From the NCBI RefSeq assembly GCF_035917455.1, contig NZ_CP109078.1, forward strand, positions 3,162,001-3,226,000: DNA of 64,000 bases, in the 5' to 3' direction. Positions 48,626 through 64,000 of this stretch are shown here, piece by piece; within the stretch, counting starts at the first letter, position 1; the number at the start of each line of letters is the position of its first letter. The notes under the pieces were generated by a model. The model saw nothing but the letters and a program-made list of their open reading frames with translations. It was not told the DNA's origin and did not search any database. The translations under genes were made by a program, and so were the position numbers. Source of the DNA: Micromonospora sp. NBC_01796 (GTDB lineage: Bacteria; Actinomycetota; Actinomycetes; Mycobacteriales; Micromonosporaceae).

Positions 48626-50899
48626 TCAGTCGTCCAGCCAGTCCAGCGAACGGCGCTCGCCGCCCCGGTTCTGCTGCTGCGGTGCGGGCGCACCGCCCCG
48701 GCCGCCGTGCCCGCCGCCCTGGGCCGACTCGTCGTAGTAGCCGCCGCCCTGCTGCTGGTCGTAACCGCCGCGGTCGTCGTAGCCACCGCCGCGCTGGTCG
48801 GCGCCACCGCGCTGGTCGTAACCGCCACGCTGGTCGTAACCGCCGGCCTGGGGCTGGTCGTAACCGCCCGCCGCCGGACCGGCACCGTAACCGGGCTGGT
48901 CACCGTAGCCGCCACGACCACCGGCGCCGTATCCGTCCGCACCCTGCTGGTCGTAACCGGCCCCGGCGGTCGGCGCGCCGTAGGCACCGCCACCACCCTG
49001 GCCGTAGCCCTGCTGGCCGCCCTGGCCGCCGTACGGCTGCTGGTCGGCACCGTACGCGCGGGTGCCGTCGCTGCCGCCGGCCCCGTAGGCACCGCCACCG
49101 GCACCGCCCTGGGCGTACGGGTCGGCCGGCGGGGCGTACTCGCTGCCGCCCGCGCTGGGACCGTCGTAGCGTCCGGTGGGCTCGTCGTAGCGGCCACCAC
49201 CACCAGGAGCCGGGGTGGGCGGGTAGGGCCCACCACTCGGCGCGGCCGGGTACGCCCCCGGTGCCGGGGGGTACCCCGCGCCGGGCTGCTCGCCGTAGTT
49301 GGCGCCGCCGTAGCCACCGGCACCCGAACCCGGTGCCGCGCCGTAGCCGCCCGCGCCGGAGGCGGGGGTGTTGCCGTAACCGGCGCCGGAACCCGGTGCG
49401 TTGCCGTAGCCGGCCGCGCCGGGTGCCGAGCCGTAGCCGCCGGCACCGGAGCCGGGCGCGTTGCCGTACTCCGAACCGGGGGCGCCGCCGTAGCCGTTGG
49501 CCGGGGCCCCGTAGCCGCCCGCGCCGGAGCCGGGGGTGTTGGGGTAACCGGCGCCCGAACCCGGTGCGTTGCCGTAGGCGCCGCCCGCGCCCGATGCGTT
49601 GCCGTAGCCACCGGCGCCGTACTCGCCACCGCCCTGCGGGGCGCCGCCGTAGCCGTAGCCGGCGCCCTGCCCGGCGGCGCCGTACGTCGACGCCTGCGGC
49701 TGCTGAGACGGCAGAGGTGCGCCGTACGGGTCCGGGAACTCGTCGTCCACCAGGGGGCGGTTGTGCATCATGGTCGGTGCGTCAGCCAGCGACGTGTTCC
49801 GGTTGATCGCCGTGGCGTCGTTGCCCATACCGGCGCGGTTCGCGACCCGGGTCGGGTCGGAGCCGCTCTGGTACCCGCCGCCGGCACCCGCCGCGGCCCC
49901 GGACCGGGGACCGTTCGGGTCGTCGTCGTCCTCGTCCGCGTTCTCCTTGCGCCGCATCCAGAGCAGGACGATGGCGCCGACACCGAGGGCGACCAGCAGG
50001 CCGCCGACGATGATCAGGATCCAGGAGCTGAGTCCGCCGCTGGAGCTGGTCTCGTCGGTCGCGGCCTGTCCGGGCGCGTCGCTACCGTCCGCAGCCGGTT
50101 CGCCCTCTTCGGTCGGCACCGCCTCGTCACTGGGCGGTGCCTCCGCGCTGGAGGACGGCGAGGCGTCGGCGAGCGCCATAACGATGCGCTGGTTGGTCAG
50201 CGTCTGGTTGGCGGCAGCCGTGATCTTCTTCTTCTGGATCTTGTCGTTCAGGCTGGCGCCGAGGTCGATCTGCCCGGGGGTGATCGGGGCACTGGCGGTG
50301 CCGAGGAACTTGAAGCTGCCACTGGAACTCGTGGTGGCGCCGTAGCTGTGGCCCTGCGAGTCGATCAGCGCGACCGAGGCGTTCGGCACCGGGGTGCCGT
50401 TGGCGTCGGTGACCCGGCCCGAGATCTCCTTGACCGTGGGCGCCGCCGCCGGCTGCGTAGGAGCTTGCTGGTCCGGGCCGCGCACAGTGAGGTTCCGCGA
50501 GTCGCTGTCGTTGTCTGTGCCGAACCCGGCAGTCACCCGCACGGAACCGCTTTTGCTTTGACCAGCGGCGAGCGTGCCAGCCGTGAGGTTGGCGGTGAAG
50601 GTGGCCGACTCGTCCGGGCCGATCGAGCGGGCAGGAACATCGCAGTCGCCGCTACAGCTAAGTCCTTCGAAGACCTCAACCGTCACGCCGAAGGGCGCGG
50701 CTACAGGGTTGTTGTTCTTGACCGTGAACTTCAGGACCGCCTTCTCGCCACTCCGTAGAGTGCCTGCGCTGAGGTCCGTGATCGATACGTCGGGATCGAC
50801 GGCGAGAGCTGGTGCCGAGGGGAGAGCGAGCAGGGCACTGGCTGCCAGCGCCACGACCACACCGGCCCGTCGCGTCCAGGCATGTCGGTGTGTTGTCAC
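48626..50899 (-). CDS. Bitopic membrane protein with Ig-like exterior and Gly/Tyr/Gln-rich cytoplasmic tail
   Basis: A 757-residue protein. The signal peptide (RRAGVVVALAASALLALPSA) precedes an extracellular CARDB/Ig-like domain (~30-140: VLKFTVKNNNPVAAPFGVTV, CSGDC). A carboxypeptidase-regulatory-like beta-sandwich follows (~150-240: ISGRVTDANGTPVPNASVAL). After an acidic linker comes one membrane helix (~305-328, WILIIVGGLLVALGVGAIVL) with basic RRK inside. The last ~420 residues are low complexity with repeats such as GSGAGGYGNAPGSGAGYGN, then YDQRGGYDQRGGADQRGGGYDD, ending LDWLDD. I recognise no family for the whole. GTG at 50899 follows GGAAGGCGG. Confidence 0.75.
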   Translation of the reverse strand: MTTHRHAWTRRAGVVVALAASALLALPSAPALAVDPDVSITDLSAGTLRSGEKAVLKFTVKNNNPVAAPFGVTVEVFEGLSCSGDCDVPARSIGPDESATFTANLTAGTLAAGQSKSGSVRVTAGFGTDNDSDSRNLTVRGPDQQAPTQPAAAPTVKEISGRVTDANGTPVPNASVALIDSQGHSYGATTSSSGSFKFLGTASAPITPGQIDLGASLNDKIQKKKITAAANQTLTNQRIVMALADASPSSSAEAPPSDEAVPTEEGEPAADGSDAPGQAATDETSSSGGLSSWILIIVGGLLVALGVGAIVLLWMRRKENADEDDDDPNGPRSGAAAGAGGGYQSGSDPTRVANRAGMGNDATAINRNTSLADAPTMMHNRPLVDDEFPDPYGAPLPSQQPQASTYGAAGQGAGYGYGGAPQGGGEYGAGGYGNASGAGGAYGNAPGSGAGYPNTPGSGAGGYGAPANGYGGAPGSEYGNAPGSGAGGYGSAPGAAGYGNAPGSGAGYGNTPASGAGGYGAAPGSGAGGYGGANYGEQPGAGYPPAPGAYPAAPSGGPYPPTPAPGGGGRYDEPTGRYDGPSAGGSEYAPPADPYAQGGAGGGAYGAGGSDGTRAYGADQQPYGGQGGQQGYGQGGGGAYGAPTAGAGYDQQGADGYGAGGRGGYGDQPGYGAGPAAGGYDQPQAGGYDQRGGYDQRGGADQRGGGYDDRGGYDQQQGGGYYDESAQGGGHGGRGGAPAPQQQNRGGERRSLDWLDD

Positions 50900-51057
50900 G
50901 TCCACCGCCTTCCGGTCTGACTTCTCCGGCCGACTCAATTCCGGCCAGGGTTCACTACCGTACGAGTACACCGTCGGCAACTATGCCTTGTTCGAGTGGA
51001 CTCGCGCGACCCAGGGGCAGCGTCAATTGACACGACGGCAGGTCGTATCGTCCCGTC

Positions 51058-53277: not shown

Positions 53278-54444
53278 GTGACGCACGTGACTGAGCGCAA
53301 TGGCGCAGGTAGCGGGTCGGCCGAGGGCTCCGGCTCCGGCGGCGGCGTGCGCCAGCCCTGGACCGCCGGATCCGGTCGCGCCACCCGCAAGCGCAGCGTC
53401 TCGTACGCGGACGCCGGGGTCTCGATCGAGGCCGGCGACCGGGCGGTCGAGCTGATCAAGTCGAAGGTACGGACCACCCAGCGGCCCGAGGTGATGGGGC
53501 AGCTCGGCGGCTTCGCCGGCCTGTTCCGGCTCGACACCACCAAGTACCGCAACCCGATCCTCTCCGCCTCCACCGACGGCGTCGGCACCAAGCTGGTCAT
53601 CGCCCAGCAGCTCGGCATCCACGACACGGTCGGCATCGACCTGGTCGCCATGGTCGTCGACGACCTGGTCGCGACCGGTGCCGAGCCGCTCTTCCTGCTC
53701 GACTACATCGCCACCGGCGAGGTCGTGCCGGACAAGGTCGCCGAGATCGTCGCCGGCATCACCGACGGCTGCCGGTACGCCGGCTGCGCGCTGCTCGGTG
53801 GCGAGACCGCCGAGCACCCCGGTGTGCTGAAGCCCGACGAGTACGACATCTCCGCGACCGGTGTCGGTGTGGTCGAGGAGAGCGAGATCCTCCGCCCGGA
53901 GCGGGTCGAGATCGGCGACGCGGTGATCGCGATGCGCTCCTCCGGCCTGCACTCCAACGGCTACTCCCTGGTCCGCCACGTGCTCCTGGGCGCCGGCCGG
54001 ATGCGGCTGGACACCGTGATCGAGGACTTCGGCCGGCAGCGGACCCTCGGTGAGGAACTGCTGACCCCGACCAAGATCTACGCGCAGGACTGCCTCAAGC
54101 TGATCGCCGAGACCGAGGTGCGGTCGATCGCGCACATCACCGGCGGCGGAATCCCCGGGAACCTGGTCCGGGTGCTGCCGGAGAACGTGGACGCGGTGGT
54201 CAACCGGGCCACCTGGAAGCCGCAGCCGATCTTCGACCTGGTGCAGGCCAAGGGCCGGATCGAGGACCCGGAGATGGAGTCCACCTTCAACATGGGCGTG
54301 GGCATGTTCGCGATCGTCTCCGCCGAGGACGCGGACCGGGCGCTGGCCTGCCTGGCGGGCCGGGGCGTCGAGGCGTGGCAGGCCGGCGAGATCATCGAGG
54401 GCACCGGTGAGGTGCAGATGATCGGCCAGCACACCCGCGGTTGA
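53278..54444 (+). CDS. purM: Phosphoribosylformylglycinamidine cyclo-ligase
   Basis: A 388-residue AIR synthetase that closes the imidazole ring of FGAM to give AIR. SYADAGVSIEAGDRAVELIK, LSASTDGVGTKLVIAQQLGI, GIDLVAMVVDDLVATGAEPL, GCALLGGETAEHPGVLKPDE and AHITGGGIPGNLVRVLPENV are the expected motifs. The first ~38 residues are Gly/Ser-rich and precede the family core. GTG at 53278 has AAAGGGGAG upstream. It follows purF at 107 bases and probably belongs to the same unit. Confidence 0.97.
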   Translation: MTHVTERNGAGSGSAEGSGSGGGVRQPWTAGSGRATRKRSVSYADAGVSIEAGDRAVELIKSKVRTTQRPEVMGQLGGFAGLFRLDTTKYRNPILSASTDGVGTKLVIAQQLGIHDTVGIDLVAMVVDDLVATGAEPLFLLDYIATGEVVPDKVAEIVAGITDGCRYAGCALLGGETAEHPGVLKPDEYDISATGVGVVEESEILRPERVEIGDAVIAMRSSGLHSNGYSLVRHVLLGAGRMRLDTVIEDFGRQRTLGEELLTPTKIYAQDCLKLIAETEVRSIAHITGGGIPGNLVRVLPENVDAVVNRATWKPQPIFDLVQAKGRIEDPEMESTFNMGVGMFAIVSAEDADRALACLAGRGVEAWQAGEIIEGTGEVQMIGQHTRG

Positions 54445-54571
54445 TCACCGAACGTACATTCGTGCATTCCGAGTTATTGCCGTGATCCTTCGCATACCCG
54501 ATCAGGACTTCACCCGAGTGGCCACCGCAACCTAGCCTGAGGGGCACCTCAGCTACGGGGAGGAGCGGCTG

Positions 54572-55705
54572 ATGGCTGTCCTGCGGCAAACGTTCACGGG
54601 TATGCGGGGCATCAACACCGTGCCCTCGTACGTGGTGATGCAGCCGACCACGCTCTGTAACCTGGACTGTTCGTACTGTTATCTCCCGTTTCGGGCGGAT
54701 GATCGGAAGATGCCGGTTCCGGTGGCGGAGGCGGTGGCGGGCCCGGTGAACGACTGGGCCCGGTCCGGTCGCTTCTCCGTGGTGTGGCACGGCGGGGAAC
54801 CCCTGGCCACCGGACGGGAGCACCTCGCCGCGCTGCTGGCCCCGTTCGACGAGCGGGTGGAACACCACGTACAGACCAACGCGACGCTGATCGACGACGC
54901 CTGGTGCGAGTTCTTCGCCGAGCACGCGATGCGGGTCAGCGTCAGCGTGGACGGGCCGAGACAGCGCAACTCCGACCGGGTGGGCCGGGGCGGGCGGCCG
55001 GCGTACGACCGGATCGAGCGGGGCATCGAGGCGCTGCGGCGCAACGGTGTCGGTTTCTCCGCCCTGTGCGTGGTGACCCGACCCGAGCCCGGCCTCGCCG
55101 CCGAGCTGTACGCGTACTTCCTCGACCTGGGGTGCGACGTGCTCGGGATCAACATCGAGGAGATGGAGGGCGTCAACACCCGCCTCAACGCCCACCCGGC
55201 CGAGGCGGTCACCGCCTTCTGGGCCGAGCTGGTCACCGCCTGGCGGGAGCGCCCCCGGATCCACCTGCGTGAGGTCGAGTGGTCCCTGCGGTACGCCTCG
55301 GCGGTCCTCGACGGCACCTCGGACGACCTGCTCCCGCGCCGGCTCGACCCGATCCCGACCGTCGGGTACGACGGCTCGGTGGTCCTGCTCTCGCCCGAGC
55401 TGGCCGGCTTCTCCGACCCCCGGTATGGGGACTTCACCAGCGGCAACGTGCTGGCCACGGGACTCGCGGAGATCCTCGCCGGGGCCGAGGGCCTGCCGTG
55501 GGTCCGCGAGTTCCTCGGCGGTGTGGAGTCCTGCCGCTCCACCTGCCCCTACTTCGGCTTCTGCGGCGGCGGTCACGCCGCCAACCGTTACTTCGAGCAA
55601 GGACGTTTCGACGGTACGGAGACCAACCACTGCCGTAACAGCAAGATCCGCCTACTCGAGGGAGTGTTGGACCATGCTCGAGATCACCAGCCCGCAGGAC
55701 GCTGA
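54572..55705 (+). CDS. Radical-SAM peptide maturase, cyclophane-synthase-like
   Basis: A 377-residue radical-SAM enzyme. CNLDCSYCY gives the [4Fe-4S] ligands Cys29, Cys33 and Cys36, preceded by the strand VPSYVVMQPTTL. WHGGEPLATGREHLAALLAP is the SAM-binding GGEP region. The C-terminus has a SPASM-like cysteine set: Cys321, Cys325, Cys331 (ESCRSTCPYFGFCGGGHAAN) and Cys354. The layout is that of maturases of ribosomal peptides in the FxsB/XyeB/GrrM superfamily, which form three-residue cyclophanes. The candidate substrate gene starts inside its last 32 bases. I recall NCBI using AmcB/AmcA for a comparable actinobacterial pair but could not check this. GGGGAGGAG precedes the ATG; a short TGAGG-GGCA-CCTCA inverted repeat (54538-54551) lies just upstream. 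Confidence 0.85.
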   Translation: MAVLRQTFTGMRGINTVPSYVVMQPTTLCNLDCSYCYLPFRADDRKMPVPVAEAVAGPVNDWARSGRFSVVWHGGEPLATGREHLAALLAPFDERVEHHVQTNATLIDDAWCEFFAEHAMRVSVSVDGPRQRNSDRVGRGGRPAYDRIERGIEALRRNGVGFSALCVVTRPEPGLAAELYAYFLDLGCDVLGINIEEMEGVNTRLNAHPAEAVTAFWAELVTAWRERPRIHLREVEWSLRYASAVLDGTSDDLLPRRLDPIPTVGYDGSVVLLSPELAGFSDPRYGDFTSGNVLATGLAEILAGAEGLPWVREFLGGVESCRSTCPYFGFCGGGHAANRYFEQGRFDGTETNHCRNSKIRLLEGVLDHARDHQPAGR

Positions 55706-55913
55706 GCCGACCGGGGGCGCCGTCCCCGACCCGGTCGCCGATCGGGTGCGCGCGGCCCGGAGCGGGCTCACCACCCTGCTGCACGAGGCCGAGCAGGCTC
55801 GTCGGGAACGCGCGGAGGAGGCGGCGGTGGGCGAGAGTGGCAGCGCGGTCTGCGCGTGGAACCACTTCGAGAACATCCCGACCTTCTACAACTGGAACAA
55901 CCGGCCACGCTGA
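55674..55913 (+). CDS. Candidate RiPP precursor with three aromatic-X-Asn motifs
   Basis: A 79-residue peptide overlapping the maturase gene by 32 bases, with GAGGGAG ten bases before its ATG. Residues 1-58 form a charged, helical leader (VADRVRAARSGLTTLLHEAE, QARRERAEEAAVGESG). The C-terminal core, about residues 60-79, is CAWNHFENIPTFYNWNNRPR. In it F65-E-N67, F71-Y-N73 and W74-N-N76 each fit the aromatic-X-Asn pattern that triceptide-type radical-SAM enzymes crosslink; W62-N-H64 is a weaker fourth site. No transporter or protease lies next to it. Its role as a substrate is inferred from overlap, size and core composition. Confidence 0.78.
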   Translation: MLEITSPQDAEPTGGAVPDPVADRVRAARSGLTTLLHEAEQARRERAEEAAVGESGSAVCAWNHFENIPTFYNWNNRPR

Positions 55914-56102: not shown

Positions 56103-56321
56103 TCAGCGGGCTGGAGGCGACCAGGTGTCTGGTTCGTCGTCCGCGTCATGGTCCTCGTCATCGTCGTCGACATACTCTTTGTAGTCGTCGTCGAAGTCGT
56201 GGTCCGACTTGCCGCTGCCGCCGAGTTCTCGCTGCAAGGCGGCGAGGTCGGTGTTCGGGGAGTGGTACTTCAACTCCCGGGCCACCTTTGTCTGCTTGGC
56301 CTTAGCACGGCCGCGCCCCAT
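56103..56321 (-). CDS. DUF3073 protein
   Basis: A 72-residue protein: MGRGRAKAKQTKVARELKYH, SPNTDLAALQRELGG, then a very acidic tail (YKEYVDDDDEDHDADDEPD). The basic N-terminus and acidic C-terminus are diagnostic of DUF3073, an actinobacterial family of unknown function encoded near purM and bldC. The ATG at 56319-56321 follows GAGGGGG. Confidence 0.93.
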   Translation of the reverse strand: MGRGRAKAKQTKVARELKYHSPNTDLAALQRELGGSGKSDHDFDDDYKEYVDDDDEDHDADDEPDTWSPPAR

Positions 56322-56821
56322 GGCTCGACCCCCTCGCACAGAATTCGGGGCAGCCCGAAGGCGGGCCCCGATGACGTCAGGCATCTCTCGTGGGTCTTAC
56401 GGTACATGGGTATGCCCGCGTTCGGCACCTCGGGTTACCGCCGGTGGTGCCCGCGCGTCGAGGTTGACCCGACCGGGCCATTTTCGGCCGGGTAACGACC
56501 GCGTTGGAAAACCGGTCATGACGGCTCGATCACCCTGTGCTGCGGGCTTACCGCCGAGACCGACCTTAGACCCCGATCGGGGACAAAACGAGGTTAATCA
56601 CGCTCGTCAGCCGGTCCCAACCCGGCGACGGGCACCGTCGTACGGGCCACGGGCGCCGGTCGAGGGTGTGAACGCCGGTCGGCTGCGGCTGACCTGCCTC
56701 GCTAGCGGCTCTGAGCGGGTCGTGACGGCCCGATCGCCCCCGGAGTCGACATCGGGGACCCCTTACCCGACCGTCGACACGGGCGAGGTGACGTGGGGTC
56801 GTGGTCGGACGCCGTACGGGG
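56322..56821. other. Long spacer between vdh and DUF3073, no gene supported
   Basis: About 500 bases. Open frames here are Arg/Pro/Gly-rich in all readings, without family resemblance or a ribosome site, so I support no protein. An AT-richer patch (GACAAAACGAGGTTAATC, 56581-56598) could hold a promoter for the minus-strand DUF3073 gene, which would then have a leader of ~250 bases. No RNA family is recognised. Confidence 0.35.
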
Positions 56822-59661: not shown

Positions 59662-60369
59662 TCAGCCGGCCGCGACCGCCAGATCGGTCTCCTCGACCAA
59701 CTGACCGTCCCGCAACTGCAACACCCGGTCCGCGAGCTCGATCAACGTCGGGTCGTGGGTGGCCACCAGCGCGGTCATCCCGCGCGACCGGACCAGCGCC
59801 TGGAGCAGGTCCATCATCGCCCGACCGGTCTCCGAGTCGAGCTGACCGGTCGGCTCGTCCGCGATCAACAACGGCGGGTCGTTCGCCAGGGCACGGGCGA
59901 TCGCCACCCGCTGCTGCTGCCCACCGGACAGCTCGTACGGCCGCTGACCCGCGTGCCCGCCCAACCCGACCAGCTCCAGCAGGATCGACACCCGCTGCTC
60001 CCGCTCGGCCGCCGGCACCTTGGCCAGCCGCATCGGCACCCCGACGTTCTCCGCCGCGGACAGGATCGGGATCAGGCCGAAGGACTGGAACACGAAACCC
60101 ATCGTGTCCCGGCGCAGCTCCAGCAGGTCCCGCTCCCCGGCCGCGGTCACCTCACGACCGGCGACGAAGATCCGACCGCTGGTCGGCCGGTCCAGGCCAC
60201 CGATCAGGTTCAGCAGGGTCGTCTTGCCCGCACCGGACCGGCCCCGTACGGCCACCAGCTCGCCCTGGCCGACCCGGAACGACACCTCCCGCAGCGCGTG
60301 CACCACCCGGTCACCGGAGCCGTAGGACCGGCTCAGACCCTCCACCCGTACCAGGTCCTCGCTGCTCAT
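59662..60369 (-). CDS. ABC transporter ATPase (LolD/MacB type)
   Basis: A 235-residue nucleotide-binding subunit. Walker [22 protein letters not shown]-loop [10 protein letters not shown], signature [16 protein letters not shown], Walker [17 protein letters not shown] and H-loop ATHDP are all intact. It pairs with the FtsX-like permease encoded two genes upstream. Its ATG overlaps the stop of the second ATPase gene (ATGA), so the three-gene operon is translationally coupled. Such transporters export or extract lipids, peptides or lipoproteins. Confidence 0.93.
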
Positions 60370-61349
60370 GGCTGCTCCTTCCGAGGTTCGTCGCCGGGGC
60401 GGATCTCCACGTGATCCGGCTGCAGGTTGAGCTTCACCCGGTCCCGCAGGACCAGGGCGTCCACGAAAGCCGTCGGCAACTGCATCCGGCCGGCCCGGTC
60501 CAGGACCGCGTACTCCTCGGTGACCAGTTCATCGAGCCCGTCCGCGCCGATCCGGGCCGACCGCCGTACCTCCGACGCGGTCCGCCCGTCGCGGATCGCG
60601 ACCGTACGACGGACCTGGGTCGCGACGTTCAGGTCGTGGGTCACCACCACCACCGTGACGCCCAGCTCCGCGTTGATGGTCCGCAGCGCCCCGAAGACGT
60701 CGGCCGCGGTCGCCTCGTCCAGCTCACCGGTCGGCTCGTCGGCGAACAGCACCTCCGGGTCGTTCGCGACCGCGACCGCCACCGCGCACCGCTGCTGCTC
60801 CCCGCCGCTCATCTGCCCCGGACGCCGGTCCGCGCAGTACCCGACCCCGACCAGGTCCAGCAGCTCCAGCGCCCGCTTGCGGGCCGCCCGGGCCGAGGTA
60901 CGCCGAGCCAGCCGCATCGGCAGCTCCACGTTCTCCCTCGCGGTCAGGTACGGCAGCAGGTTCCGTCCGGTCTGCTGCCAGACGAAACCGACAGTGCTCC
61001 GGCGGTAGCGCAGCCGCTGCTTGGCCGACATGGTCAACAGGTCGAACCCGGCCACCCGGGCGATCCCCGCGGTCGGCACGTCCAGCCCGGAGAGGATGTT
61101 GAGCACGGTGGACTTGCCCGAGCCGGAGGCGCCGACGATGGCGATCAGGTCGCCCCGGTCGATCACCAGGTCCAGCCCCTGCAGGGCCACCACCTCGACA
61201 CCCTCGGTCTTGAAGATGCGTACCAGGCCGTCGCAGACGATGTGGCCACGCAGGCGGTCGTTACCGCCGGCCCGCTCCGCCGCCCGTTCGGCGGCACGGC
61301 GTTGCAACGCCGCGAGATCGGGTACGGCGGTGGTCAGGGCAGCGGTCAT
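60366..61349 (-). CDS. ABC transporter ATPase with C-terminal AbrB-like domain
   Basis: A 327-residue ATPase. A ~40-residue N-terminal extension is followed by Walker A GASGSGKSTVLNILSGLDVP, Q-loop FVWQQTGRNL, signature QMSGGEQQRCAVAVAVANDP, Walker B VLFADEPTGELDEATA and H-loop VTHDLN. After residue ~270 the chain continues as EEYAVLDRAGRMQLPTAFVD and ALVLRDRVKLNLQPDHVEIR. This closely resembles the swapped-hairpin AbrB/MazE fold (xDxAGRxxLPxxxxxALxLxDxVxL). The start overlaps the permease stop by one base (TGATG). A heterodimer with the neighbouring ATPase is likely. Confidence 0.88.
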   Translation of the reverse strand: MTAALTTAVPDLAALQRRAAERAAERAGGNDRLRGHIVCDGLVRIFKTEGVEVVALQGLDLVIDRGDLIAIVGASGSGKSTVLNILSGLDVPTAGIARVAGFDLLTMSAKQRLRYRRSTVGFVWQQTGRNLLPYLTARENVELPMRLARRTSARAARKRALELLDLVGVGYCADRRPGQMSGGEQQRCAVAVAVANDPEVLFADEPTGELDEATAADVFGALRTINAELGVTVVVVTHDLNVATQVRRTVAIRDGRTASEVRRSARIGADGLDELVTEEYAVLDRAGRMQLPTAFVDALVLRDRVKLNLQPDHVEIRPGDEPRKEQP

Positions 61350-64000
61350 CAGTTTTCCTCTCCCAGCCGGAGGACCTCGCCGAGGCGCATCCGTCGGTTG
61401 ACCAGATTCTCGAACACGAGCGCGGCGGCCAGACCGACCACCACCAGCAGCAGCACCCCGCCGACCAGCAACGGGTCCAGATGGGTCCGGGCGGCCACCC
61501 CGGCGGTGAAGGTGGACAGGTTCAGCGCCGGCCCGATCAGGCCGGGCAGCGCCACCCCGACCACCCCGCCGGCCAGCACCGCGGCGCCGACCAGCGGAAG
61601 CAGCTCGTACACCAGCAGTTGCCGACCCTGCCGGCCGGACAACCCCATGGTCCGCAGCCGGGAGAGCACCCGGCCCCGGGTCCGCGCCTCGGCGACCACC
61701 GCGAATCCGACCGCCAGCAGCGCCAGCCCGCTCCCGCCCAGGGCACCGATCGTGAACGCCAGGGTGAGCAGCTCGTTTCCGCCGGTCCGGTCCAACCCCA
61801 ACCGGTAGTCGGTCAGGGTGGTCACCGCAGCCGGGGCCAGGAGCGCGTCGACCGGCCTGCCGATCACGCTCTCCCGCCACTCCCGCTGCCCGTCGTCGGC
61901 GGCGGCCAGCAGCGCGGCCCGGTCGTAGCCGTCCCCGGCGAGCAGGTAACGGGTCGGGTTGATCGGCTTGAAGTCGGGCACCGGCAGCGCCTGCCAGGGC
62001 AGCACCACGAACCGCTCGACCCCGATCTCGACCCCGGGGAAGCTCGACGCCACCACGCTCGACGTGAAGCCGTAGAGCCGGCCCTGCACGTTCACCACGG
62101 CGCCGTCGCCGACCTCCGCCGCGATCGCGGGGGAGACCAGCGCCGGCACCGGGCCGTCGGTCCGCTTCGCGTTCCGCAGCGCCGCCGGCACCCCGTCATC
62201 GGGTACGCCGCTGCGCCGCATCACGTCGACGAAGCTCGGCATGTCCACCACCAGCACCTGGGTCTGCCCGAGGTCACGATCGGACGCACTGGGGCCGGTA
62301 CGGAGCCGGCGGGCGTTCTCCAGCGAGATCGCGGTCACCGCGTCCACCCCGGGCAGCGCGTCGAGCCGGTCGGTCGTCGACGGGGCGAAGGTGTTCCCGG
62401 TGAGCCTGGCGTCGGCCGGGATGGCCTGCTCGCTCGCCCTGTCCCGGGCGTGCGAGATGGTGCTCGCGACCACCCCGCTGAAAACCCCGGTGGTGATCGC
62501 GATGACCAGCACCGCGAGCGGGCCGATGGTCACCGGTGCGCCCCGCCCGGCTCGGGCCAACCCGAGGAAGACGACCGCTCCCCGGGCCCTCGCGGCGATC
62601 TGCCCGACCATCCGCAGCGGCCAGGGCAGCACCCGCAGGGCGATCAGGGAGGTCCCGACCGCCAGCAGGACCGGCACCGAGACCAGGTACGGGTCCACCC
62701 CGCCGTCCGGCACCAGCCCGCGCCGCCGGAGCAGGAACACCCCGAGCCCGGCCAGCACCAGCACGCTGATCTCGGCGGTGAGCCGGCGGGCCGACGGCCG
62801 TTGCCGGATCAGGTCCTGCCGGCGGACCACGAACGTCACCCGACGCTGGCTCGACATCGCCAGCACCGGCACCGCCGCAGTGGTGATCACGGCGAGCACC
62901 GGGACCAGCCACTCGGTCAGCGCGGACCGACCGGGAACCAGGGTCCCGAGCAGCCACCCGGCGAGCACGGCGAACGGCTGGACCAGCACCGACTCGGCCA
63001 GGGTGCGTCGACCGATGGTCGCCGTCGACGCTCCCCGGGCCCGCAACAGGGCCAGTTCCTCGCGGCGGCGTTCCAGCGACAGCCGGGCGGCGAGCAGGAT
63101 CAGCCCGAGCAGGCTGGCCAGCACCCCGGTCTCGACCACCGCGAGCAGCGCCCGTACGGAGGCGAGCCGTTCGCCGAGTTGGATCAGGGAGACGTCCAGT
63201 GAGGTGACCACCGTGGTACCCGGCGCGGGGGAGGCCCGCTTCAGGCGTACCACCGCGTCGGTCACCGCCTTGGCCTTGCTGGCGTCGAGCCGCTTCTCGT
63301 CGATCCGGTAGTGCCAGTCGAGGGTGACCGAGCCGAGGCGGGGGCCGGCCGCGTTCATCCCGGCCCAGTCGGTCACCGCGATCGCCCGGAACCGCTCGCC
63401 GTCCATCATCGGTATCTGCGGGTCCACGGCCAGTCGCATGGCGTTCCAGATCGGCGCGGTGGTGTCCAGCGGCTCGAAGATCCCGACCACCACCACCGGG
63501 ACCTTGGCGGAGCCCACCAGGGAACCGATGTCGAACCGGCTGCCGAGGGCCAGCATGAGCGCGTTCGCGGTCCGCTGGGACACCGCGATCGGGATCCGCC
63601 CGCCCGGCAACCCGGCGGTCGCGTCCGGCCACGTGCCGGAGACCATCCGGACGGCCTCGTCCACCCCGGTCTGCGCCCGCAGGCCGAGCCCCGGTTGGCT
63701 GTCGCCGTTGAACGGAGGGAAGTCGCCCGACGCGCCCACCCTCTCGGGTTCGATCCCCGCCGAGTACCACTGGTCGGTGATCAGACCGGGCAGCGGCTGC
63801 GGCAGCTTCTCCCGGTACGGGTCCAGGTCCTCGATCCCGGTCTGGGTGGTCCTGGCCTTGTCGATGCCGGCCGCCATCGGCAACGAGATGTCCCGGACCT
63901 GGTACGGAAGGTCCGCCACGTCGGCGGCCAGTCCCCGGTCGGCGTACTCGTTGGCCAGTCGGGGGGCACCGGTGAGCAGCGCCGCCGAAGCCAACCCCAG
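61349..64000 (-). CDS. FtsX-like ABC permease (partial, enters from right edge)
   Basis: At least 883 residues of a large MacB/FtsX-type permease; the N-terminus lies beyond the window. Extracytoplasmic domains alternate with helices such as VLASLLGLILLAARLSLERR followed by REELALLRARGASTATIGRR (FtsX coupling region), FAVLAGWLLGTLVPGRSALT, LVISVLVLAGLGVFLL-like segments and, near the end, AAVLAGGVVGVALPGLIGPA. Two FtsX modules with long external loops are visible. It is the first gene of the exporter operon with two downstream ATPases, suggesting export of a cell-envelope substrate that is not identified. Confidence 0.88.
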   Translation of the reverse strand: MGLASAALLTGAPRLANEYADRGLAADVADLPYQVRDISLPMAAGIDKARTTQTGIEDLDPYREKLPQPLPGLITDQWYSAGIEPERVGASGDFPPFNGDSQPGLGLRAQTGVDEAVRMVSGTWPDATAGLPGGRIPIAVSQRTANALMLALGSRFDIGSLVGSAKVPVVVVGIFEPLDTTAPIWNAMRLAVDPQIPMMDGERFRAIAVTDWAGMNAAGPRLGSVTLDWHYRIDEKRLDASKAKAVTDAVVRLKRASPAPGTTVVTSLDVSLIQLGERLASVRALLAVVETGVLASLLGLILLAARLSLERRREELALLRARGASTATIGRRTLAESVLVQPFAVLAGWLLGTLVPGRSALTEWLVPVLAVITTAAVPVLAMSSQRRVTFVVRRQDLIRQRPSARRLTAEISVLVLAGLGVFLLRRRGLVPDGGVDPYLVSVPVLLAVGTSLIALRVLPWPLRMVGQIAARARGAVVFLGLARAGRGAPVTIGPLAVLVIAITTGVFSGVVASTISHARDRASEQAIPADARLTGNTFAPSTTDRLDALPGVDAVTAISLENARRLRTGPSASDRDLGQTQVLVVDMPSFVDVMRRSGVPDDGVPAALRNAKRTDGPVPALVSPAIAAEVGDGAVVNVQGRLYGFTSSVVASSFPGVEIGVERFVVLPWQALPVPDFKPINPTRYLLAGDGYDRAALLAAADDGQREWRESVIGRPVDALLAPAAVTTLTDYRLGLDRTGGNELLTLAFTIGALGGSGLALLAVGFAVVAEARTRGRVLSRLRTMGLSGRQGRQLLVYELLPLVGAAVLAGGVVGVALPGLIGPALNLSTFTAGVAARTHLDPLLVGGVLLLVVVGLAAALVFENLVNRRMRLGEVLRLGEEN

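What the first reader, a model, noticed from the sequence alone, without database searches (positions are those of the whole stretch)
54572..55913. Two-gene RiPP locus with a multi-cyclophane-type core, directly after purM
Seen: a CX3CX2C radical-SAM enzyme with a C-terminal cysteine cluster overlaps by 32 bases a 79-residue peptide ending CAWNHFENIPTFYNWNNRPR. Three aromatic-X-Asn triplets (FEN 65-67, FYN 71-73, WNN 74-76) sit within 12 residues, after a charged leader. Known: triceptide-type radical-SAM/SPASM enzymes join an aromatic ring to the beta carbon of a residue two positions on, often Asn. Inference: the product carries up to three consecutive cyclophanes, and no protease or exporter is adjacent. 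The combination of F, F and W rings with FYN-WNN back to back is unusual. It may belong to the pair I recall as AmcA/AmcB in NCBI annotation.
Basis: partly seen in the sequence, partly recalled or inferred. Interest (0 to 1): 0.88.

Follow-up and report, generated by a model that had tools for sequence, protein, structure and literature searches.

The report
Core-genome AmcB/AmcA triceptide pair
Two overlapping genes make a small peptide and the radical-SAM enzyme predicted to stitch three rings into its tail; the family is already named, but the tail is almost unchanged across most of a bacterial family, and sister versions sit beside proteins that resemble known DNA-gyrase protectors.

Summary
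54572-55705 encodes AmcB (NCBIfam NF041718, 524.8 bits, cut-off 425) and 55674-55913 AmcA (NF041722 phane_AmcA_3a, 112.6 bits, cut-off 65). Both families are already named: a new member of a known kind, with ring chemistry inferred, not tested.

Homologues support three rings: in 121 aligned precursors of the purM-linked clade and 19 AmcA_1-like ones, the three ring positions are always F or W, while partners vary among N/D/S, N/D/Q/E and N/K (the distant set was picked partly by such motifs).

Two additions. (1) The purM-linked type is nearly core in Micromonosporaceae: AmcA_3a passes its cut-off in 243 of 300 family genomes, and residues 60-78 are found unchanged (Y or F at 72, R or S at 77) in 239 of 300. 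AmcB distances track PurM (r 0.88). This fits a physiological role better than an arms-race antibiotic. (2) AmcA_1-like loci, one in this genome, carry a Qnr/MfpA-like pentapeptide-repeat protein in 21 of 23, against 0 of 118 purM-clade loci: possibly a gyrase-directed ancestor, unproven. The window product's function is unknown; both ideas are testable.

The parts
54572..55705 (+). amcB: radical-SAM peptide maturase, 377 aa
   Evidence: NF041718 524.8 bits (cut-off 425); Pfam PF04055; AF2 model nearest in PDB to ChlB (9gmc/9gm3), TM 0.74
54656..54679 (+). CX3CX2C motif (C29-C33-C36), expected to bind the SAM-coordinating [4Fe-4S] cluster
   Evidence: Cys at each position in 120 of 121 purM-clade proteins (1 X), 20 of 20 at 38-60% identity and 9 of 9 more distant; cluster role is established knowledge of the superfamily
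55532..55633 (+). C-terminal cysteine cluster C321-x3-C325-x5-C331-x22-C354, expected to hold one auxiliary cluster
   Evidence: C321, C325, C331 in 121 of 121 purM-clade and 20 of 20 at 38-60% identity; C354 in 121 of 121 and 19 of 20
55674..55913 (+). amcA: precursor peptide, 79 aa, type 3a
   Evidence: NF041722 112.6 bits (cut-off 65); overlaps amcB by 32 bases, as in 84 of 141 loci with the start chosen by script
55674..55844 (+). leader (1-48, motif RVRxxxxGLxxLLxEAExARxxRAE) and variable linker (49-57)
   Evidence: mean pairwise identity 0.593 (leader) and 0.446 (linker) over 110 type-3a loci
55845..55910 (+). 22-residue core, residues 58-79
   Evidence: of 122 purM-clade loci, 104 have it identical, 6 with Y72F, 12 have type-3b-like cores; residues 60-78 exact in 239 of 300 family genomes; 24,347 synonymous against 624 non-synonymous pairwise codon differences among the 110
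55866..55874 (+). triplet FEN 65-67, predicted ring 1
   Evidence: 65 = F120/W1, 67 = N110/D11 of 121
55884..55892 (+). triplet FYN 71-73, predicted ring 2
   Evidence: 71 = F121, 73 = N110/Q7/E4 of 121; W at the equivalent of 71 in 19 of 19 distant precursors
55893..55901 (+). triplet WNN 74-76, predicted ring 3
   Evidence: 74 = W110/F11, 76 = N121 of 121
54509..54538 (+). promoter-like TTCACC-N18-TAGCCT between purM and amcB
   Evidence: -10-like motif in 58 of 79 upstream regions against 0.64 expected in shuffles; 33 of the 58 also have a TTnA-like -35; 21 loci lack the motif; no transcript data
53278..54444 (+). purM (neighbour)
   Evidence: synteny
56103..56384 (-). DUF3073 protein (neighbour)
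   Evidence: PF11273; synteny

Best explanation
This is a triceptide-type RiPP pair of the named AmcA/AmcB families. AmcB, using SAM, the CX3CX2C iron-sulphur cluster and an auxiliary C-terminal cluster, grips the AmcA leader helix. It then joins each ring residue (F65, F71, W74) to the beta carbon of the residue two places on (N67, N73, N76), giving three consecutive three-residue cyclophanes and a loss of about 6 Da. Shown here: gene content, family membership, predicted fold, conservation, synteny and a recurrent promoter-like element. Inferred: the crosslinks, the leader contact and the clusters. The purM-linked version is a vertically inherited, nearly core gene pair of Micromonosporaceae whose product has been held constant. 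I therefore infer a physiological role for the producer (an internal or envelope-acting peptide, perhaps used uncleaved or trimmed by a general protease) rather than an arms-race toxin.
For: Family scores. AF2 model (pLDDT 89.1) nearest to ChlB, which a title in a reference list calls a 'multiple cyclophane synthase'. Rings always aromatic and partners polar across types. The related enzyme OscB joins Trp to Asn/Asp and Phe to Asn (PMC11002830 passage). Prevalence: AmcA_3a 243 of 300, AmcB 258 of 300, exact residues 60-78 in 239 of 300. AmcB against PurM distance correlation 0.879, 0 of 999 permutations, 70 loci. Core frozen while leader varies. Own promoter-like motif. In five Catellatospora loci and Allorhizocola purM is not seen next to amcB, yet amcBA stays with DUF3073/LeuDH.
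Against: No mass or NMR data for this peptide. N67 and N73 become D, Q or E in type 3b, and partner Q/E was not seen in the passages I read. AmcB lacks a recognisable SPASM domain. Invariance also fits a structural constraint of the enzyme. No protease or exporter was found, so release is unexplained. 57 of 300 family genomes are below the AmcA_3a cut-off. Four genomes of one genus code (G047, G067, G083, G097) pass that cut-off but lack the exact core. One distant precursor (L139) has His at the first ring position of an additional upstream unit.
Confidence: 0.72

Rival explanations
1. The window's product is an antibacterial aimed at DNA gyrase, like the proposed activity of the AmcA_1 systems, and its producers are protected by other means.
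For: Same precursor frame and related maturase. AmcA_1-like loci carry Qnr/MfpA-like pentapeptide-repeat proteins in 21 of 23 cases; such proteins are self-resistance factors for gyrase poisons (passages of PMC8145042, and PMC12406682).
Against: 0 of 118 purM-clade loci have the protein within the stretch held. 44 of 61 family genomes have no match to it at E<=1e-12. A nearly invariant product shared by most of a family is unlike an arms-race toxin.
Confidence: 0.15
2. A different ring set: only two of the triplets react because FYN and WNN touch, or W62-x-H64 forms a fourth ring.
For: W62 is W in 116 of 121; adjacency could strain two neighbouring rings.
Against: W62 is P or A in 5 of 121 and position 64 is P in 7, whereas residues 65, 71 and 74 never lose aromaticity. 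The touching arrangement ([FW]x[ND] followed directly by W) is kept in all 19 distant precursors found.
Confidence: 0.2
3. The pair serves purine synthesis, being tied to purM.
For: Conserved position after purM (72 of 78 named family loci).
Against: Promoter-like motif of its own in 58 of 79. purM not adjacent in six named loci. Outgroups and amc-less relatives have purM near DUF3073 without amc (7 of 16 stretches), so the position looks like an insertion into an old gene order.
Confidence: 0.03
4. AmcA acts as an unmodified small protein and AmcB has another substrate.
For: No protease is adjacent; the leader is conserved too.
Against: The two genes overlap and occur together; both belong to families defined as a maturase/precursor pair; the aromatic/polar triplets that vary in step with type need an explanation.
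Confidence: 0.05

Closest known systems
NCBIfam AmcB (NF041718) with AmcA_3a (NF041722)
   Same: Both proteins score over the curated cut-offs.
   Different: Nothing structural. The near-core distribution and frozen core described here are not part of the family names; the likely source paper (Phan and Morinaka 2022) was not held, so I cannot say whether it reports them.
AmcA_1 systems (NF041721), including a second locus in this genome (G000:C1:1461842-1462909)
   Same: Related AmcB (about 40-55% identity); same [FW]x[NDS]-xxx-[FW]x[ND]-W frame. 13 of 14 precursors scored pass the AmcA_1 cut-off; L133 does not.
   Different: Mostly a doubled core (by reading), a pentapeptide-repeat protein in 21 of 23 loci, and no purM neighbour in the stretches held.
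GrrM/OscB (TIGR04261)
   Same: Second-best family, 235.3 bits; OscB crosslinks Trp and Phe to Asn/Asp or Asn.
   Different: Below its cut-off of 310 bits; AmcA is not a Gly-rich repeat peptide (by reading).
ChlB (PDB 9gm3/9gmc)
   Same: Closest solved fold, TM 0.74, 19-20% identity; described by title as a multiple cyclophane synthase.
   Different: Works with an alpha-KG HExxH hydroxylase partner (passages); no such domain in AmcB.

Membership tests
AmcB (NF041718) | whole-protein score over 425 bits | tested here: met
   524.8 bits
AmcA_3a (NF041722) | whole-protein score over 65 bits | tested here: met
   112.6 bits
AmcA_3b (NF041723) | whole-protein score over 65 bits | tested here: not met
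   37.8 bits
GrrM/OscB (TIGR04261) | whole-protein score over 310 bits | tested here: not met
   235.3 bits
Triceptides | radical-SAM enzyme next to a precursor with aromatic-x-polar triplets | tested here: met
Triceptides | three-residue cyclophane (aromatic carbon to beta carbon at i+2) formed | not testable with these tools
   needs co-expression with MS and NMR
SPASM-domain radical-SAM enzymes | SPASM domain with its seven-Cys pattern (pattern recalled) | tested here: not met
   no Pfam SPASM hit at E<=1; only four C-terminal Cys conserved. The predicted fold still resembles anSME, CteB-type and SuiB structures
Pentapeptide-repeat-protected gyrase poisons | pentapeptide-repeat protein next to the biosynthetic genes | tested here: not met
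   0 of 118 purM-clade loci; 21 of 23 AmcA_1-like loci do have it

The most novel reading that the evidence does not exclude
Amc peptides began as gyrase-directed antibacterials protected by a Qnr/MfpA-like pentapeptide-repeat protein. In an ancestor of most Micromonosporaceae one copy landed between purM and DUF3073, lost the protector, and was domesticated into a frozen crosslinked peptide with a housekeeping role, perhaps modulating the producer's own gyrase.
Probability: 0.12. Interest if true: 0.85.

Novelty: new member of a known kind. Interest (0 to 1): 0.5.

Why it matters
A passage of PMC12026744 says that, among three-residue-ring peptides, biological activity is well understood only for dynobactin and darobactin. 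A triceptide that is nearly core and almost invariant in a family of antibiotic producers can be deleted in laboratory Salinispora or Micromonospora strains to ask what such peptides do. The pentapeptide-repeat neighbour of the sister systems names a concrete target (gyrase) to assay. In the held library, one search found 13 papers with at least two of the terms 'pentapeptide repeat', 'cyclophane', 'triceptide' and 'multiple cyclophane'; all 12 listed had zero for the first. Most subscription papers are not held, so this is no proof of novelty.

Tried and rejected
Operon with purM: rejected on the promoter-like motif, the hairpin-like sequence between purM and amcB seen by eye in many Actinoplanes-group loci, and rearranged neighbours. 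The palindrome TGAGGggcaCCTCA before amcB looked like an operator, but among 78 named family loci only three Plantactinospora loci share it exactly: dropped. W62-x-H64 as a fourth ring: weak. ABC/FtsX block as exporter: in 2 of 8 stretches. Mobility on plasmids: one weak match covering 8% of the query among 72,556 plasmid records. A distant pentapeptide-repeat partner for type 3a: not general (44 of 61 genomes without); 7 of the 12 best matches examined had no amcB within the stretch held, so the protein also occurs alone. Phan and Morinaka 2022 is not held; I saw its title only in reference lists.

Rows dropped or mishandled: alignment A1 for the fold used 38 sequences out of the window and 80 loci. 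The distance test used 70 of 77 loci (six without purM, plus L070, whose AmcB match is broken). L083 and L141 had no recognisable precursor and no pentapeptide-repeat protein; they are the two misses of 23. The 19 distant precursors come from 20 loci tested (L083 gave none; L141, L191 and L192 were not in that test), and they were first picked by counting aromatic-x-N/D motifs, which leans towards the result. The 110 type-3a loci were picked by a pattern of the core itself; the full set is 122 purM-clade loci, of which 12 are 3b-like. L001-L080 are the best 80 of 439 by AmcB similarity and L093-L122 the best AmcA_3a matches, so both lean to close relatives; one search was run to check this on 300 genomes. 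The 110 hold 5 duplicate pairs, and L132 duplicates L069. purM itself lies inside the stretch in 114 of the 122 loci (72 of 78, 40 of 42, and the window twice). In one search the window row was labelled 'far' by a script slip, though it falls inside 3a next to Plantactinospora; L142 and L149 were not in that tree, a quick one with 14 of 54 inner branches open. The pentapeptide-repeat HMM was built from 10 of the 23 loci it was then counted on; those 10 are over Pfam cut-offs. AmcA starts were chosen by script partly by nearness to the amcB stop, so the 32-base overlap count leans that way.

Full report
What is there. Two overlapping + strand genes lie 127 bases after purM: a 377-aa radical-SAM protein (54572-55705) and a 79-aa peptide (55674-55913). 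NCBIfam names them AmcB (NF041718, 524.8 bits, cut-off 425) and AmcA type 3a (NF041722, 112.6 bits, cut-off 65). Three aromatic-x-N triplets at the C-terminus are not chance: 0 of 100,000 shuffles, and 1 of 933 window ORFs.

The enzyme. CX3CX2C is C29-C33-C36; C321, C325, C331 and C354 are Cys in 121 of 121 purM-clade proteins aligned. Pfam finds Radical_SAM but no SPASM domain at E<=1, and no upstream cysteine pair is conserved, so one auxiliary cluster is the likelier reading (inference). AlphaFold2 gives a confident model (pLDDT 89.1); I see no room in it for an N-terminal recognition domain (my reading). Its nearest solved structures are ChlB with its leader peptide or precursor (TM 0.74), then anSME, a sactipeptide maturase and SuiB. 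The title of a ChlB paper, seen in the reference list of PMC12636437, calls it a multiple cyclophane synthase.

The peptide. Of 122 purM-clade loci, 110 have the 3a core and 12 a 3b-like one. Among the 110, which were picked by the core's pattern, the 22-mer is identical in 104 and has Y72F in 6; they hold 79 DNA versions, and 24,347 of 24,971 pairwise codon differences are synonymous, so the constraint is on the amino acids. Leader (1-48), linker and core have mean identities 0.593, 0.446 and 0.995. Five pairs are duplicates, leaving 105 distinct; the named ones span 17 genera. As these loci lean to close relatives, I checked 300 family genomes with a degenerate pattern: residues 60-78 (Y or F at 72, R or S at 77) are present in 239, against 243 over the AmcA_3a cut-off. 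The four that pass the cut-off without the pattern, G047, G067, G083 and G097, share one genus code. Type 3b mostly replaces FEN/FYN/WNN by FED/FY[QE]/F[ST]N. The more distant AmcA_1-like type has [FW]D[NS]-xxx-WD[ND]-W in the same frame in 19 of 19 precursors found in 20 loci. Ring residues are F or W at all three places in every one, while W62 is not so kept; L139 has a His at the ring position of an extra upstream unit. This pattern is what three i to i+2 aryl crosslinks predict, with partners N, D, S, Q, E or K. Partners named in the passages I read are Asn, Asp, Arg, Ser and Ala (PMC11002830); Q, E and K as partners rest on alignment only.

Distribution and inheritance. AmcB passes its cut-off in 258 of 300 genomes of the family and AmcA_3a in 243 of 300, with one match in each genome listed. 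Type 3b was found in 10 of 25 genomes chosen to probe the rest. In a class-wide sample of 394 genomes only 8 pass for AmcB: the window's genome, two other members of its family and five of one other family code. In all 78 named Micromonosporaceae loci (L001-L077, L080) DUF3073 and LeuDH follow; purM precedes in 72, and the six without are five Catellatospora and Allorhizocola, where the order of purF and its neighbour suggests an inversion or a cut flank. In genomes without AmcB and in outgroups, DUF3073 falls within the stretch beside purM in 7 of 16 (L163, L168, L172, L174-L177), with no amc between. AmcB distances track PurM (r 0.879) and LeuDH (r 0.864), 0 of 999 permutations each, 70 loci. 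The AmcB tree puts the purM-clade sequences together (SH-aLRT 100), with 3b (88) and 3a (80) inside. A -10-like motif precedes amcB in 58 of 79 loci against 0.64 expected; 21 loci, the Catellatospora and Dactylosporangium ones among them, lack it.

The sister systems. This genome has a second AmcB (G000:C1:1461842-1462909, 547.3 bits) with an AmcA_1 precursor followed closely by a pentapeptide-repeat gene. Of 14 such precursors scored from different loci, 13 pass the AmcA_1 cut-off. Ten pentapeptide-repeat neighbours all pass Pfam cut-offs. An HMM built from those ten finds one in 21 of 23 AmcA_1-like loci, in 0 of 118 purM-clade loci (827 kb, stretches of about 2 to 9 kb) and in 0 of 19 loci of more distant radical-SAM enzymes. 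PF00805 matches only four places in the 8.56-Mb genome, one of them this one. By sequence the best PDB matches of the L091 protein are designed solenoids, followed by QnrB1, MfpA and McbG-like chains. A model of the L079 member (pLDDT 78.3, only two sequences) is a beta-helix with a C-terminal helix; its first Foldseek match is a Clostridium pentapeptide-repeat protein (6fls, TM 0.57), and its best TM among the listed ones is EfsQnr, titled a DNA gyrase inhibitor (0.67). PMC8145042 (passages) describes AlbG as a self-resistance factor against the gyrase poison albicidin; PMC12406682 (passages) reports such a protein in the cluster of the gyrase-targeting speirobactin and names McbG as immunity factor for microcin B17. 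So AmcA_1 peptides may act on gyrase. Against a simple story: pentapeptide-repeat proteins have other or unknown functions, 7 of the 12 closest relatives stand without amcB in the stretch held, and scores against Qnr and MfpA models are far below their cut-offs.

How it most likely works. Shown: families, predicted fold, conservation, synteny. Inferred: AmcB binds the AmcA leader and closes three rings. For function I commit to a physiological role of a constant product, at about even odds; a gyrase-directed antibacterial is the main rival. Release of the core is open, since no protease or exporter is linked.

Verdict. Correct observation, largely correct interpretation, known family, unproven chemistry. 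What raises it above routine annotation is the frozen, near-core status and the protector-like protein of the sister loci, each of which gives a direct test.

Noticed in passing
L178 / G000:C1:1460902-1462909: A second Amc system in the same genome: AmcB, an AmcA_1 precursor and a pentapeptide-repeat protein.
   Followed up: yes
L195, L196, L198-L202: Relatives of the Amc-linked pentapeptide-repeat protein without amcB within the stretch held: possible orphan immunity genes.
   Followed up: partly
L078:6035-8387: The Saccharothrix deserti Amc locus lies beside ORFs that look by eye like phage prohead protease and major capsid protein, so that copy may be in a prophage.
   Followed up: no
L207 (G079): In a type-3b genome the DUF3073-LeuDH-bldC block appears turned round relative to amcA, a second rearrangement that left amcBA in place.
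   Followed up: partly
G047, G067, G083, G097 (one genus code): AmcA_3a passes its cut-off but the exact core pattern is missing; two of the matches end one profile position early, so the last residues may differ.
   Followed up: no
window 59662-63994 (-): Two ABC-type ATPases and a large FtsX-like permease beyond bldC, present there in 2 of 8 relatives.
   Followed up: partly
window 48626-50980 (-): A 784-aa protein with a long low-complexity Gly/Tyr/Pro/Gln-rich tail ending LDWLDD; some relatives next to purF or amcB show that ending too (by eye).
   Followed up: no
L071:2722-4060: A divergent Micromonosporaceae MAG precursor ending PRWTDVFTTQFTEFSNRPR whose last 60 residues match no NCBIfam model at E<=0.01.
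   Followed up: partly
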